Assembly: GCF_001884135.1 (NCBI RefSeq)
Contig: NZ_MAOC01000093.1
Span: 1-64,000 of the forward strand
Origin: Bacillus nitratireducens
GTDB lineage: Bacteria > Bacillota > Bacilli > Bacillales > Bacillaceae_G
Length of the DNA: 64,000 nt
Direction: 5' to 3'
Part shown: piece after piece, positions 3,206 to 56,343 of the stretch
Position numbering within the stretch: position 1 is the stretch's first letter
Layout of the letters: every line of letters starts with the position of its first letter
Position numbers and translations under genes: made by a program
Notes under the pieces: model-generated
What the model was told of the DNA's origin: nothing
Databases searched by the model: none
What the model saw: only the letters and a program-made list of their open reading frames with translations

Positions 3206-3271
3206 CCTTACAATGTTGTAAGGTACGTGTAAGAGAAATCGATGGGATATTCTTTTACAACAAGGTATTCT
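3206..3271 (+). promoter_or_regulatory. Promoter of the glycosyltransferase gene with upstream palindrome (shared architecture, copy 1)
   Basis: Perfect palindrome TTACAATGTTGTAA (3208-3221), CGATGG beginning at 3240 and a -10-like TATTCT at 3266-3271. The -10 ends exactly 50 bases after the palindrome ends. There is no good -35 hexamer, so an activator bound at the palindrome is likely. The same geometry recurs at 38003-38068, 48864-48929 and 55718-55783 on the other strand. A transcript starting near 3278 would have a leader of about 38 nt to the ATG at 3316. Confidence 0.6.
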
Positions 3272-3315
3272 TAAGTTAAGAGTTATATATGCTGTGTGGA
3301 AAAGAGGTGTTCGAG

Positions 3316-4092
3316 ATGAAAGAACGAGTATTATCTAGAGTGAACTATCATCAAAAAGTTGCATTAAATCCATTAAATAAATTTCTTTATAAAGCCATTA
3401 TATTATTATTATTGTTAAGTTTTGCATTATTATTCGTTGGAAATGTAATGATTGAGCGAAGTGATATTAGTAAATTACATGTACCTGCTAATTTAGAGGT
3501 GCCAGAATCATTAACACACGCATTTATTGCGACGGAAGATAAAAGATTTTATCATCATAACGGTTTAGACTATATAGCGATTATCAGGGCGTCTATTGAG
3601 AATATAAAAGCTGGTGGTGTTGTGCAAGGAGGAAGCACGATTACACAGCAGTTATCTAAAAATGCTTTCCTATCTAATGAACGTACATTTTCCCGTAAGT
3701 GGAAAGAAATTTTTTATACGAAAAAGATTGAACGTACATTCACAAAGGATGAGATATTAAAATTGTATGTAAGTAATATTTACTACGGAGAAGGCGCATG
3801 GGGGATTGAAAAAGCAGCAAACCTTTACTTCGGTAAAAAAGTGAATCAATTAACACTGGCTGAAAGTGCAATGATGGCTGCTGTAGTAAAAGCACCGGCT
3901 TATTACTCACCTGCACAAAATTATGATAAAGCAGTTGAGAGACGGAATGTAGTTTTAAGGTTAATGGAGAAAGAAGGCTATATAAATCATGATGAATATG
4001 TGCAAGCAGTTAGCGAGAAACTAGTAATTCGTCATGATATAAAAACAGAGCAATCCATGTTAAAAAATGCCCGTGAAAAAGCAGTAAGTTAA
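3316..4092 (+). CDS. Monofunctional peptidoglycan glycosyltransferase (GT51)
   Basis: A 258-aa membrane-anchored transglycosylase that polymerises lipid II into glycan strands outside the membrane; no transpeptidase domain follows. One transmembrane segment at about 25-45. GT51 motifs are complete: EDKRFYHHNG (about 74-83) with the catalytic Glu, GGSTITQQLSKN (about 105), RKWKEI, and the LAES segment. Length matches MtgA/Mgt-type enzymes. Start chosen at ATG 3316 with GAGG at 3304-3307. An earlier in-frame ATG at 3289 would lie only about ten bases from the transcription start inferred from the upstream promoter. Its promoter is shared with micropeptide genes elsewhere in the window. Confidence 0.9.
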   Translation: MKERVLSRVNYHQKVALNPLNKFLYKAIILLLLLSFALLFVGNVMIERSDISKLHVPANLEVPESLTHAFIATEDKRFYHHNGLDYIAIIRASIENIKAGGVVQGGSTITQQLSKNAFLSNERTFSRKWKEIFYTKKIERTFTKDEILKLYVSNIYYGEGAWGIEKAANLYFGKKVNQLTLAESAMMAAVVKAPAYYSPAQNYDKAVERRNVVLRLMEKEGYINHDEYVQAVSEKLVIRHDIKTEQSMLKNAREKAVS

Positions 4093-37793: not shown

Positions 37794-37878
37794 ATTGGGA
37801 GATAAGGGATCAAAAAAATGATGAAGTCTTATCTCTTTTATATGAGTAAAGGGTCTAGAATGAATTTTGTCCTTTTCA

Positions 37879-37962
37879 TTATTTGTTTAACTCCATTGCA
37901 ACCTGTTTCCCATTTACAAAAACCTCTGCCACCGCTACTACAACTTCCATCACTTTTTTCAT
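37879..37962 (-). CDS. 27-aa micropeptide, copy A of a dispersed pair
   Basis: Frame encoding MKKVMEVVVAVAEVFVNGKQ then VAMELNK. AAGGAG stands about nine bases before the ATG. The paralog at 48747-48830 has 22 of 27 residues identical; of 12 differing codons, 7 are synonymous and the 5 replacements are conservative, a pattern that marks coding sequence. The last 11 residues are invariant. There is no signal peptide and the Val/Ala-rich core is amphipathic or strand-forming. The promoter with upstream palindrome (38003-38068) gives a leader of about 35 nt. I know no family for it. Confidence 0.78.
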   Translation of the reverse strand: MKKVMEVVVAVAEVFVNGKQVAMELNK

Positions 37963-38002
37963 ATCTCATCTCTCCTTGTTTTTTGTTTCATTTCTTACTT
38001 TT

Positions 38003-38068
38003 AGTATAAGGAAATACAGTAATTGCAACCATCGAATTGGATGACATGAGACTTACATTGTTGTAAGG
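38003..38068 (-). promoter_or_regulatory. Micropeptide promoter (shared architecture, copy 2)
   Basis: On the minus strand: TTACAACAATGTAA (38066-38053), CGATGG starting at 38034 (19 from the palindrome end), and TATACT (38008-38003) ending 50 bases after the palindrome. No consensus -35. Followed by the 27-codon gene. Confidence 0.65.
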
Positions 38069-48657: not shown

Positions 48658-48693
48658 CAAAAGCAGCGCCTTAAAAAGGCACTGCTTTTTTTT
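48658..48693 (+). terminator. Terminator of the malic enzyme gene
   Basis: AAAAGCAGCGCCTT / AGGCACTGCTTTTTTTT. Confidence 0.9.
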
Positions 48694-48746
48694 GAGATAA
48701 GAAATCAAAACAATGAAGAAGTATAAATTTATTCAAGCCCCTTTCA

Positions 48747-48830
48747 TTATTTATTTAATTCCATTGCAACTTGTTTACCATTTACTAAAACCTCAGTTAC
48801 TGCTACGATCACTTCTATCATTTTTTTCAT
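48747..48830 (-). CDS. 27-aa micropeptide, copy B of a dispersed pair
   Basis: Frame encoding MKKMIEVIVAVTEVLVNGKQ then VAMELNK, paralog of 37879-37962. GGAGAG lies just before the ATG. Promoter with upstream palindrome at 48864-48929 leaves a leader of about 30 nt. The downstream flank (GAGATAAG-n2-ATCAAAA-n1-AATGA) is also shared with copy A, so the whole unit was duplicated. Confidence 0.78.
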   Translation of the reverse strand: MKKMIEVIVAVTEVLVNGKQVAMELNK

Positions 48831-48863
48831 CTCTCCTCTCTCCTCGCTTCATCTCTTACTTTA

Positions 48864-48929
48864 AGTATAAGAGAAGAGAGATGATCCAACTATCGAAGTA
48901 CGGGACGTAGAAATTCCATTGTTGTAAGG
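48864..48929 (-). promoter_or_regulatory. Micropeptide promoter (shared architecture, copy 3)
   Basis: On the minus strand: TTACAACAATGGAA (48927-48914, one half-site mismatch), CGATAG starting at 48895, and TATACT (48869-48864) ending 50 bases after the palindrome. Same spacing as the other copies. Confidence 0.62.
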
Positions 48930-52162: not shown

Positions 52163-52675
52163 TTATTTTTCTTCATCAAGGAAAAGAACCATATGCTCTT
52201 CATCCCAATATTGTCCGTTATATTTTAATGAACGTTCCTGCACACCAAATGTTTTAAAGCCTAATGACTCATAAAGTTTTTTTGCACCATCGTTGCCAAC
52301 AACTACATCAAGCATAACTTGCTCTACTTCTAGAGATTTAGCAAGTTCAAGACATTCCTTAATAAGTGCTTTTCCTGCTCCAAGTCCGCGTGCTTTTGGA
52401 GACACGTATACTGAACCAATTTTCGCTTTATGTTCTTGTTTTACATATGGTTTCGTTTCCAGTGTTGCAACTCCGATTAATTCTCCATCTTTAAATGCAC
52501 CTAGTGTATAGTTCTCATCTTGTGCTAATTTTTGGGCTTTATATTCAATAGCACACTCTTTATTAATAATATCTTCATAAGAAGAGCTGAAAGCTTCCGG
52601 GTTTTGTTTTAATCCTTCTACTCGAAGTTCTAAGTAAATTTCTGCTTCGTCTTTTGTTAATACATGGATATCCAA
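52163..52675 (-). CDS. GNAT acetyltransferase, paralog 1
   Basis: A 170-aa single-domain GNAT. Acetyl-CoA loop VSPKARGLGAGKALIKE and the NDGAKKLYESLGFKTFG motif are clear. Very similar to the protein encoded at 55837-56343, especially after residue 80 (shared KIGSV-VSPKARGLGAG and the NGQYWDEEHMVLFL ending). Substrate unknown. GGAGGGTG precedes the ATG. Confidence 0.87.
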   Translation of the reverse strand: MDIHVLTKDEAEIYLELRVEGLKQNPEAFSSSYEDIINKECAIEYKAQKLAQDENYTLGAFKDGELIGVATLETKPYVKQEHKAKIGSVYVSPKARGLGAGKALIKECLELAKSLEVEQVMLDVVVGNDGAKKLYESLGFKTFGVQERSLKYNGQYWDEEHMVLFLDEEK

Positions 52676-52821: not shown

Positions 52822-54285
52822 TTATTCAAAGGGTAATTCAATTATAAATTCTGTTCCGACTTCTAATTCGCTTTTTACTTCGATAGAACCATTATGAAGT
52901 TCTACAATTTCCTTTGCAACAGCCAGTCCGATACCTTTTCCACCTGTAGCTCGTGTTCTAGATTTATCGACACGGTAAAAGCGATCGAAAATGTGTGGGA
53001 TATCTTCTTTTGGAATTCCTTCACCTTCATCTTGTACACTTATTGTAAAAGTATTCGTACTCGATAGTACACGTATTGTTATAGAAGTGTTTTCTGATGA
53101 ATGTTGATAAGCGTTGTGTAATAAATTTAACATCACTTGTTCCATACGCCTTTCATCTATACAAACTTCTAAATCATTTTTACAGTATACATGAATTTCT
53201 ATTTGTTTGTTTGTTAATGTTGTTTTTGTTTTTTCAACCATTCGTTCTAAAAATGGTCTAAGGGGCATTTTTTGTTTTTTAATAACGAATTGATGTTGCT
53301 CTAATTGTGCAAGCATAAATAAATCTTGTACGAGATCGGTTACACTATCCGTTTCGTCTTCAATGATTTGTAAGTATTCTTCACGTTCTTCTTTCGTTAG
53401 AGAATCTCTTTTTGCTACCTTTGCATAACCTTTCATATAGGTTAATGGAGTTAGTAATTCATGCGCTACACTAGCGAGAAATTCGTTTCGTTCTTTTTTC
53501 ATATACGTAAGTTCACTAGATAAATCTTCAATCGTTTTTGCTAAGCTTCCAAGTTCATCATTTCGTTTAATTCCTAATTGAATCGGCTTATTTAATTTTG
53601 ACATTTTTTCTGTCGCCCGCTTCATTTTTATAAGCGGTTCTGTAATAACACGAGAAAAAACAAAGACAGAAATAGTAGTTAAAATAATTGTCAAAACACT
53701 AATGATAAAAAATTGATTCATGAGTTTAAGTAACATATTTTCTAAGAAAGATGTCTTTAATAACATATATAACTTACCTTGAAATCCTTGAATTTCCAGC
53801 GGGCTTACCGTTGAGATGAATTTTGATTTTTTCCAGTTTTTTTCAACGATTAATCCACCTTCTGGGATAGTCTCTGTTTTACAAGTAAGTTGTTTTTGCA
53901 TTTCTTTCGTTACGGGTTCTGAGGTAGAAATAATTTTGCCGTTATTGTCTGTTATAATGATAGCTATATCAGAGTTAGCAATTAATTCAGATTCAACTAA
54001 GTGTTCAGCCTCAGTGTTGATATCAAACTCGGGGTACACAGCACGTTTAGGCCGTTTACTGTGTTCAGCGCTTTCTGTGAGTTTCTTTTCTTTAGAATAT
54101 GCACCCCACTTCGCGCGGTTTTTGATCATTTTACTATAGCGATTTCCTTTCTCTAAAAGAGCAAGAGTTTCCTCTTCAATACGTATGTTTGAAAGGTTCT
54201 TATAAAAAGATACGAAGGCAATTGTTTCAATACATAAAGCTAATATTAAAAAGTATGTCCCAACTTTAAGGGAAAGTTTGCTCAT
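52822..54285 (-). CDS. Sensor histidine kinase with HELLTP phosphoacceptor motif
   Basis: A 487-aa kinase. Membrane segments near 10-30 and 195-220 flank a sensor of about 165 residues; HAMP domain (about 220-275); phosphoacceptor AHELLTPLTYMKGY, where the usual Arg of HELRTP is Leu; N-box NLLHNAYQHS and G2 GKGIGLAVAKEIV. Start at ATG 54285 preceded by GGTGAG; an upstream ATG at 54327 is less likely. Downstream of its regulator gene, with a hairpin between them. Confidence 0.85.
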   Translation of the reverse strand: MSKLSLKVGTYFLILALCIETIAFVSFYKNLSNIRIEEETLALLEKGNRYSKMIKNRAKWGAYSKEKKLTESAEHSKRPKRAVYPEFDINTEAEHLVESELIANSDIAIIITDNNGKIISTSEPVTKEMQKQLTCKTETIPEGGLIVEKNWKKSKFISTVSPLEIQGFQGKLYMLLKTSFLENMLLKLMNQFFIISVLTIILTTISVFVFSRVITEPLIKMKRATEKMSKLNKPIQLGIKRNDELGSLAKTIEDLSSELTYMKKERNEFLASVAHELLTPLTYMKGYAKVAKRDSLTKEEREEYLQIIEDETDSVTDLVQDLFMLAQLEQHQFVIKKQKMPLRPFLERMVEKTKTTLTNKQIEIHVYCKNDLEVCIDERRMEQVMLNLLHNAYQHSSENTSITIRVLSSTNTFTISVQDEGEGIPKEDIPHIFDRFYRVDKSRTRATGGKGIGLAVAKEIVELHNGSIEVKSELEVGTEFIIELPFE

Positions 54286-54309
54286 TTTCTCACCATACCT
54301 TATTTCATA

Positions 54310-54348
54310 TAAAGGGCCAGTGGTCAACTATTGTCCACTGACCCAATT
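54310..54348 (-). terminator. Hairpin between regulator and kinase genes
   Basis: GGTCAGTGGACAA / TTGACCACTGGCC without a long T-run. Probably tunes regulator-to-kinase ratio instead of ending transcription fully. Confidence 0.5.
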
Positions 54349-55526: not shown

Positions 55527-55616
55527 CTATATAATAAACCAAGGTAAAATTGCTAATCCAGAAGTTACAATTGCTGTGGCACATATTAAAAAGATAGCTC
55601 GTTTATTTTGTCTCAT
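55527..55616 (-). CDS. 29-aa membrane microprotein
   Basis: Frame encoding a basic start MRQNKRA and a hydrophobic helix IFLICATAIVTSGLAILP, ending WFII. GAGGAG lies nine bases before the ATG. Convergent with the 40-aa gene and sharing its terminator. Its probable promoter (55718-55783) has the same palindrome architecture as the micropeptide promoters, with a bcr-like repeat between promoter and gene. Confidence 0.68.
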   Translation of the reverse strand: MRQNKRAIFLICATAIVTSGLAILPWFII

Positions 55617-55660
55617 GTCACATTCTCCTCTACATATCAATTGCATGCTATACGTTCATG

Positions 55661-55712
55661 TAATAATCAGCGGGAGATGGATACTCCTTGCTGAGTAAAG
55701 TTTCACTTTATA
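55661..55712 (+). repeat. bcr-like dispersed repeat, copy 3 (degenerate)
   Basis: TAATAATCAGCGGG...CTTGCTGAGTAAAGTTTCACTTTAT; same 3' end as the copy at 49592-49685 but shorter and diverged. Lies within the predicted 5' leader of the 29-aa gene. Confidence 0.62.
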
Positions 55713-55717
55713 TTTTT

Positions 55718-55783
55718 AGTATAACGAATGGAAAGGATTGGAACGATCGATAAAGGTGACATGAAGATTACATTGTTGTAATG
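55718..55783 (-). promoter_or_regulatory. Microprotein promoter (shared architecture, copy 4)
   Basis: On the minus strand: TTACAACAATGTAA (55781-55768), CGATCG starting at 55749 and TATACT (55723-55718) ending 50 bases after the palindrome. Without the bcr-like insert the leader would be about 45 nt, like the other copies. Confidence 0.62.
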
Positions 55784-55836: not shown

Positions 55837-56343
55837 TTAATTATTTAAGAATAAAACCATATGCTCTTCGTCCCAATATTGACCGTTATGCTTTAAGGAA
55901 CGCTCTTGCACACCGTAAGTTTGGAAGCCGAGGGACTCATATAATTTTTTTGCAGCAGTGTTATCAGCAACAACATCAAGCATGAGCTGTTCTACATGTA
56001 ATTTATCGGCATTTTCAATAATCGCTTTAATTAAAGCTCGTCCTGCACCGAGGCCGCGCGCTTTTGGAGAAACAAAAACGGAGCCGATTTTTGCCTTATG
56101 TTCTTGCTTAATAAATGGCTTTGTTTCTAAAGTAGCAATGCCAACTAAATCATTATCTTTGAAGACACCTAGAGTATACTTATCAGGATTGCTTAATCGC
56201 TTTGCCATGGCAGCGACAGGGTTTTCATGTTTAAGAACATCTTCATAAGAAGAGCTAAAAGCCTCAGGGTTTTTCGTTAAACCTTCCATACAAACTTTCA
56301 AATAAATTTCTGCGTCCTCTGTTGTTAATAAGCGAATTTCCAT
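55837..56343 (-). CDS. GNAT acetyltransferase, paralog 2
   Basis: A 168-aa GNAT closely similar to 52163-52675: NPEAFSSSYED near the start, VSPKARGLGAGRALIK loop, NTAAKKLYESLGFQTYG and the same C-terminus. AGGAGGT precedes the ATG. The pair flank a two-component system and probably arose by duplication. Confidence 0.87.
   Translation of the reverse strand: MEIRLLTTEDAEIYLKVCMEGLTKNPEAFSSSYEDVLKHENPVAAMAKRLSNPDKYTLGVFKDNDLVGIATLETKPFIKQEHKAKIGSVFVSPKARGLGAGRALIKAIIENADKLHVEQLMLDVVADNTAAKKLYESLGFQTYGVQERSLKHNGQYWDEEHMVLFLNN

What the first reader, a model, noticed from the sequence alone, without database searches (positions are those of the whole stretch)
37798..38068. Dispersed micropeptide cassette, two near-identical copies (37.8-38.1 kb and 48.7-48.9 kb)
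Both copies contain, on the minus strand, the palindrome promoter, a short leader with a ribosome site, a 27-codon gene and a shared 3' flank (GAGATAAG...ATCAAAA...AATGA). The peptides are 22/27 identical, with 7 of 12 codon differences synonymous and all 5 replacements conservative; the ending NGKQVAMELNK is unchanged. This is selection on a protein, not a non-coding repeat. The copies sit after different operons 10.8 kb apart, so the unit has been duplicated and relocated as a block. I know of no described family; possible roles include signalling peptide, membrane-active peptide or regulator of a larger protein.
Basis: partly seen in the sequence, partly recalled or inferred. Interest (0 to 1): 0.85.

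Follow-up and report, generated by a model that had tools for sequence, protein, structure and literature searches.

The report
Paired stress-promoter micropeptides with self-blocking mRNA
Two sister genes for a 27-residue peptide sit behind a promoter that looks like those bacteria switch on when antibiotics attack their cell envelope, and each message seems able to fold back and hide its own start signal, so they may be tightly held stress peptides of a kind not described before.

Summary
In detail: two 27-codon minus-strand genes (37879-37962, 48747-48830), 22/27 residues identical, 12 codon differences, 7 silent. One outside relative was found, in Heyndrickxia sporothermodurans (L001).

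New: (1) The "palindrome promoter" has one architecture in both copies, in L001 and at two more window sites: TTACA-N4-TGTAA, a TGTNA half-site 11 bp on, a -10 hexamer 58 bp from the palindrome start. It resembles sites of BceR-type regulators, which answer cell-envelope antibiotics. L001 carries an NsrR-like regulator and short kinase 3.5 kb away. In viral contigs the architecture precedes PAP2 or DUF1093/YxeA genes in 5 of 8 loci, two near-identical groups; wrong-spacing controls gave 0 and 10 loci, none with these genes seen. (2) The "shared 3' flank" is complementary to the ribosome site, start codon and first codons (1 and 27 of 2000 shuffles pair as well), predicting a translation-blocking fold-back, as in type I toxin mRNAs. 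L001 lacks it.

Best reading: an envelope-stress-induced amphipathic micropeptide, probably membrane-acting. Conservation in close relatives, translation and function remain unshown.

The parts
37879..37962 (-). micropeptide gene A, MKKVMEVVVAVAEVFVNGKQVAMELNK, stop included
48747..48830 (-). micropeptide gene B, MKKMIEVIVAVTEVLVNGKQVAMELNK, stop included
38052..38067 (-). promoter A: perfect palindrome CTTACA-N4-TGTAAG (main BceR-type site)
38042..38046 (-). promoter A: TGTCA half-site, 11 bp after the TGTAA arm; TCGAT follows at 38031-38035
   Evidence: and sequence
38003..38008 (-). promoter A: -10 hexamer TATACT
   Evidence: not picked up by the sigma-70 scan, which needs a better -35
48913..48928 (-). 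promoter B: decayed palindrome CTTACAACAATGGAAT; CGTCC at 48903-48907 and TCGAT at 48892-48896
48864..48869 (-). promoter B: -10 hexamer TATACT
   Evidence: not picked up by the sigma-70 scan
37943..37972 (-). translation start region of A (ribosome site, ATG, codons 2-7) predicted to be sealed by the 3' arm
   Evidence: duplex -28.9 kcal/mol, 1 of 2000 shuffles as strong
48811..48840 (-). translation start region of B, predicted to be sealed
48694..48722 (-). anti-start arm B in the 3' untranslated region
   Evidence: duplex -26.8 kcal/mol, 27 of 2000 shuffles as strong
48659..48689 (-). terminator-like hairpin behind B, overlapping that of the convergent malic-enzyme gene
   Evidence: the same scan found no terminator near A
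3207..3222 (+). same promoter architecture, perfect palindrome; -10 hexamer TATTCT at 3266-3271
3289..4092 (+). GT51 transglycosylase behind that promoter (the in-frame ATG at 3316 is the likelier start)
   Evidence: PF00912, E 1.9e-63; start choice is inference
55767..55782 (-). same promoter architecture (two changes in the twelve palindrome letters, none in TTACA-N4-TGTAA); -10 hexamer TATACT at 55718-55723
55527..55616 (-). unrelated 29-residue hydrophobic micropeptide C, MRQNKRAIFLICATAIVTSGLAILPWFII

Best explanation
Genes A and B are paralogous stand-alone micropeptide genes in a cell-envelope-stress regulon controlled by a BceR-type (OmpR-family) response regulator. When a cell-wall-active peptide antibiotic is sensed through a BceAB/BceS-like module elsewhere in the genome, the phosphorylated regulator binds the palindrome, then the TGTNA half-site, and recruits RNA polymerase to a promoter with a good -10 and a poor -35. 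The short mRNA carries an anti-start arm after the stop codon that can fold back on the ribosome site, ATG and first codons, so finished transcripts would be closed; peptide would be made from nascent or 3'-trimmed mRNA, giving a pulse. The peptide is a single amphipathic helix with two N-terminal lysines, probably lying on the inner membrane face, where it most likely modulates an envelope-stress protein (the Bce-type module or lipid II synthesis). Shown by computation: the genes, promoter architecture, regulon company, RNA complementarity. Inferred: regulator identity, fold-back control in vivo, helix at the membrane, target.
For: Five promoters (A, B, C, GT51, L001) put the -10 at exactly the same distance from the palindrome. 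Scored on 19 positions, the window has 4 sites at 16 or more against a mean of 0.1 in 200 shuffles, and 3 at 18 or more against a highest score of 17 in any shuffle (the pattern was written after seeing the sites). Out of sample, in viral contigs: the architecture found 8 loci, 3 before PAP2 phosphatases and 2 before DUF1093/YxeA proteins; a variant with TCGAT found 34 loci, 1 before DUF1093, 31 with one other promoter and protein of unknown role, 2 beside ssrA; wrong-spacing controls found 0 and 10 loci, with no PAP2 or DUF1093 among the frames printed (read by eye). The whole L. paracasei PsdR/ApsR consensus AnnTTACnAnnnnGTnAG (PMC10858260, passages) fits GT51 and L001; A fits all but its first letter. 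L001 has a short kinase plus a regulator whose best PDB match by 62 bits is NsrR 5dcl/5dcm, of the lantibiotic-resistance class. Fold-back. Helix: AlphaFold2 of the L001 peptide, helix 2-28, mean pLDDT 87; helical moment p 0.03-0.05.
Against: Only one relative was found, and its sequence score alone (35-38 bits) would not be significant against the whole collection; homology rests on context. No relative in any close species was seen. No BceRS or BceAB was recognised in the window, although only one of its two-component pairs was put to Pfam and whole-genome search was impossible. The simple sigma-70 scans did not report promoters A or B. Copy B's palindrome is decayed (2 of 12 letters; CGTCC instead of TGTNA). 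The 5 supporting viral loci are two groups of near-identical sequences, not five independent cases; 3 of the 8 do not fit, and 31 of the 34 hits of the other pattern precede a protein of unknown role. L001 and peptide C lack a significant anti-start arm (314 and 546 of 2000). Of 48 larger genes of the window one (52822-54327) has a start-to-3' duplex of -27.3, stronger than copy B's. Between A and B the helix shows almost no compensatory change. AlphaFold2 readily gives helices for short peptides.
Confidence: 0.55

Rival explanations
1. Type I toxin: a membrane-active micropeptide whose full-length mRNA is held inert by a 5'-3' long-distance interaction and released by 3' trimming, as in hok and AapA3, here with a stress-regulated promoter.
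For: The anti-start arm in both copies; the same occlusion geometry is described for aapA3 (PMC6733600, passages), whose ORF is 90 nt against 84 here.
Against: No convincing antisense RNA promoter: the simple scans found one + strand site near A and none near B, totals no higher than in shuffles. Hydrophobicity moderate (best 19-residue mean 1.34 and 1.29). The arm is absent from L001. The regulon company looks protective.
Confidence: 0.15
2. Dual-function or purely regulatory RNA: the conserved helix is what matters, and the frame is incidental or secondary.
For: Long 5'-3' helix predicted in both copies.
Against: Substitutions fall 11 of 14 in third codon positions; the protein is kept in L001 while the RNA arm is not; no Rfam family there.
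Confidence: 0.1
3. The peptide is exported and acts outside as a leaderless bacteriocin, PSM-like surfactant or signal.
For: Amphipathic helix, net charge +1 to +3, lone gene behind an inducible promoter.
Against: No signal sequence by eye; no exporter or immunity gene recognised among the 8 neighbours scanned; both copies lie at the ends of convergent unrelated operons.
Confidence: 0.12
4. The promoter belongs to another OmpR-type regulator (WalR or PhoP bind direct TGTAA-like repeats at 11 bp, recalled), not a BceR-type one.
For: TGTAA and TGTNA form an 11-bp direct repeat in A, C, GT51 and L001; WalR controls wall enzymes (recalled).
Against: The inverted TTACA arm is conserved too; PAP2 and DUF1093/YxeA targets and the regulator-kinase pair beside L001 fit BceR-type modules.
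Confidence: 0.15

Closest known systems
[quoted passage not shown] subtilis), PsdR/ApsR (L. paracasei)
   Same: Inverted repeat TTAC..GT upstream of the target promoter; DUF1093/YxeA is a gene of such modules and lies behind this architecture in viral contigs
   Different: Targets named in the passages read are transporters, YxeA-type proteins, dlt and mprF; no 27-residue peptide among them
VraH of S. aureus VraDEH
   Same: Small accessory protein of a Bce-type module (PMC7438565, passages)
   Different: VraH is a membrane protein encoded in the transporter operon; A and B are stand-alone, not clearly transmembrane; no sequence comparison was made
CwrA of S. aureus
   Different: Different organism; regulator and sequence not compared
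hok and aapA type I toxin mRNAs
   Same: 3' end of the mRNA sequesters the ribosome site (PMC6733600, passages)
   Different: No antisense antitoxin seen, toxicity unknown, peptide only moderately hydrophobic

Membership tests
Target of a BceR-type response regulator | Inverted repeat of the TTACA-N4-TGTAA kind upstream of the promoter | tested here: met
   Exact at A, C, GT51 and L001; B has one change in the ten repeat letters. The TTACnAnnnnGTnAG string holds at A, GT51 and L001, not at B or C.
Target of a BceR-type response regulator | Secondary site downstream of the main site | tested here: inconclusive
   TGTNA half-site 11 bp on in A, C, GT51, L001; CGTCC in B. That BceR promoters need a secondary site is recalled, not read here.
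Target of a BceR-type response regulator | Cognate BceRS-like pair in the genome | tested here: inconclusive
   Regulator and short kinase beside the L001 gene; window genome not held.
Target of a BceR-type response regulator | Induction by envelope-active peptides | not testable with these tools
   needs a reporter
Type I toxin | mRNA with occlusion of the ribosome site (here 5'-3') | tested here: met
   Predicted for A and B; not for L001 or C
Type I toxin | Antisense RNA antitoxin | tested here: inconclusive
   No convincing + strand promoter; simple scan only
Type I toxin | Small hydrophobic, usually transmembrane peptide | tested here: inconclusive
   27 residues, best 19-residue Kyte-Doolittle mean 1.34 and 1.29
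Type I toxin | Toxicity on overproduction | not testable with these tools
   -
Known small-protein family | Match to a curated profile or structure | tested here: not met
   Pfam, PHROGs and NCBIfam none for A, B and the L001 peptide; PDB best E 0.64 for A; A none in plasmids and phages

The most novel reading that the evidence does not exclude
A family of envelope-stress-induced micropeptides whose own mRNAs carry a fold-back lock of the type known from toxin-antitoxin systems, but without an antitoxin RNA: the lock, not an antisense RNA, turns a sustained antibiotic signal into a brief pulse of a membrane-active peptide. With peptide C, micropeptides would be a regular output class of BceR-type regulons.
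Probability: 0.25. Interest if true: 0.78.

Novelty: new variant of a known kind. Interest (0 to 1): 0.57.

Why it matters
BceR-type modules are a main route by which Gram-positive bacteria resist bacitracin, lantibiotics and host peptides. Three micropeptide genes and a transglycosylase behind one promoter architecture in 64 kb would add an unseen layer of small effectors, and an mRNA that locks its own start codon would be a translational control that I have not seen linked to this response.

Tried and rejected
Leader peptide or attenuator: rejected for A and B, since the next gene downstream is convergent. Known RNA family: the 8 Rfam matches of the window are all tRNAs. Mobile element or plasmid/phage cargo: peptide A has no match in plasmids or phages, the L001 peptide none in plasmids (51); cassette A DNA has 7 weak plasmid matches covering at most 14 percent, E 0.07 or worse (53); no relative in viral contigs (183 candidate stretches, none confirmed). 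Peptide C: no match in plasmids, nothing in Pfam, three PHROGs of unknown function at E 0.07-0.11. For the palindrome, PlcR and TnrA sites (recalled), HitR/HssR (direct repeats) and GraR were considered and set aside by sequence. A claim of covariation in the fold-back was dropped: the consensus structure is fitted to both copies, and only 2 of 40 pairs change on both sides. In one search peptide C was entered one base out of frame; that query is void and C was re-read. Searches used wrong end coordinates and are void. No published description of the peptide was found; the ten text searches were made, of which only 61 (peptide letters) and 88 (small proteins of this group; listing only) look for the peptide itself.

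Full report
WHAT IS THERE. Both micropeptide genes exist as described. A is at 37879-37962 and B at 48747-48830, both minus strand, each with a purine-rich ribosome site, ATG and TAA. They differ at 14 of 84 bases, 3/0/11 by codon position; 12 codons differ, 7 silently. Random placement of the same substitutions kept as many residues in 16 of 20000 trials. One antisense frame is equally conserved between A and B because its wobble positions coincide (22 of 26), but it has no start codon in B, only a TTG in A, and is less conserved against L001. So a protein is the better reading. Both genes lie at the tail of convergent, unrelated operons: an ABC-transporter solute-binding protein for A, a malic enzyme for B. 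There is no downstream gene on the same strand to regulate.

RELATIVES. It shares 16 of 26 residues with A and 18 of 26 with B. Alone, 35 to 38 bits would mean little against a collection of that size; what makes it convincing is that the same promoter, at the same spacing, lies upstream. No hit came from a close relative of the window. Plasmids, phages and viral contigs gave none.

THE PROMOTER. Aligning A, B, L001 and two further palindrome sites of the window gives one architecture: TTACA-N4-TGTAA (TGGAA in B); TGTNA 11 bp after the second arm (CGTCC in B); TCGAT 11 bp further (ACAAT in L001); and a -10 hexamer starting 58 bp after the first T, in all five. The -35 region is poor, and the sigma-70 scans did not report A or B. 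The two further sites precede a GT51 transglycosylase (3289-4092, PF00912) and a 29-residue hydrophobic peptide C (55527-55616). Scoring 19 positions, the window holds 4 sites at 16 or more (mean of 200 shuffles 0.1) and 3 at 18 or more (best of any shuffle 17). This score is partly circular, because the pattern was written from these sites and A and B are homologous.

WHICH REGULATOR. The L. paracasei PsdR/ApsR consensus AnnTTACnAnnnnGTnAG fits GT51 and L001 in full and A in all but the first letter; B and C miss one or more letters (PMC10858260, passages only; sequences). Beside the L001 peptide lies an OmpR-type regulator (857-1531) whose end overlaps the start of a short kinase frame (3-899, cut by the end of the stretch). 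The regulator's best match in the PDB is 5dcl/5dcm at 188.8 bits, the next 126.8; those entries are NsrR of the lantibiotic-resistance class, aligned by its authors with BceR (PMC4773095, passages). The kinase's BceS likeness is my reading of its layout; Pfam gives only HATPase_c above cut-off.

OUT-OF-SAMPLE TEST. The architecture was searched in viral contigs. With the -10 fixed and TCGAT left free: 8 loci. L040, L041 and L043 precede a PAP2 phosphatase (Pfam on L040 and L041; L043 is cut short but near-identical), L038 and L042 precede DUF1093/YxeA proteins, and L037, L039, L044 do not fit. With TCGAT and no -10: 34 loci: 31 share one near-identical promoter, 29 of them with the same protein start and 26 with that frame at least 150 residues long, of unknown role (L013, 161 residues, no Pfam match over cut-off); 1 (L008) precedes DUF1093; 2 lie beside ssrA (by eye). 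YxeA belongs to the BceR-type YxdJK-YxdLM module (PMC7438565, PMC3968067, passages). Two controls with wrong spacing gave 0 loci and 10 loci; none of the 10 showed PAP2 or DUF1093 among the frames printed (read by eye; one locus printed no frame); one (L049) precedes a 36-residue membrane peptide. The five supporting loci form two near-identical groups, so this is two cases plus L008, not six.

THE 3' FLANK. The last 29 bases of the flank, 25 of 29 identical between copies, are complementary to the ribosome site, start codon and codons 2-7 in both copies. Duplex energies are -28.9 (A) and -26.8 kcal/mol (B); 1 and 27 of 2000 shuffled flanks pair as well. Whole transcripts fold better than shuffles (z -2.14 and -2.68; 4 and 2 of 200 shuffles as good). 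With the arm, mean unpaired probability of ribosome site plus ATG is 0.37 in A and 0.24 in B; without it and what follows, 0.65 and 0.82. Among 48 larger genes of the window the mean start-to-3' duplex is -14.4 (sd 3.4); one, 52822-54327, reaches -27.3, stronger than B. Between stop codon and arm B has 24 bases where A has 51, and the flank as a whole aligns no better than unrelated upstream DNA (47 of 84 against 63 of 118 columns), so the arm is what is kept. Compensatory change is almost absent. L001 and C show no such arm (314 and 546 of 2000). So the lock, if real, belongs to the A/B pair.

THE PEPTIDE. AlphaFold2 gives the L001 peptide one helix, residues 2-28, pLDDT 87; such predictions come easily for short peptides. 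By their spacing of 3 and 4, polar residues K3, E6, E13, N17, Q20, E24 and K27 of A and B would fall on one side; K2, K19 and N26 do not. The helical moment exceeds shuffles at p 0.03-0.05. Hydrophobicity is moderate. Conserved in all three: MKK, AV, EV, VNGKQVA, LN.

VERDICT. A real micropeptide pair, most likely BceR-type regulon members, with a predicted translational lock. Regulator class about 0.7, translated peptide about 0.85, lock acting in vivo about 0.45, membrane-side modulator about 0.4 (my estimates). It works like a small accessory output of an antibiotic-response regulon; it is not shown to be a VraH relative or a type I toxin on the present tests.

Noticed in passing
window 3207-4092: GT51 transglycosylase behind a perfect copy of the same promoter; wall synthesis as a probable regulon output.
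   Followed up: partly
window 55527-55782: Unrelated 29-residue hydrophobic micropeptide behind the same promoter, followed by a hairpin.
   Followed up: partly
L013 1476-2092 and 30 further loci: 161-residue protein of unknown function behind the same promoter pattern; in L013 an integrase gene lies about 1 kb further on.
   Followed up: partly
L049 6351-6409: Similar palindrome with shorter spacing before a 36-residue membrane peptide.
   Followed up: no
L001 5164-5766: Lipoprotein_22 protein 70 bp behind the Heyndrickxia micropeptide, possibly one operon.
   Followed up: no
window 52822-54327: Histidine kinase gene whose 3' region is strongly complementary to its own start region (-27.3 kcal/mol).
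   Followed up: no
window 52163-52675 and 55837-56343: Two similar GNAT acetyltransferase genes flanking a two-component system, apparently another local duplication.
   Followed up: partly
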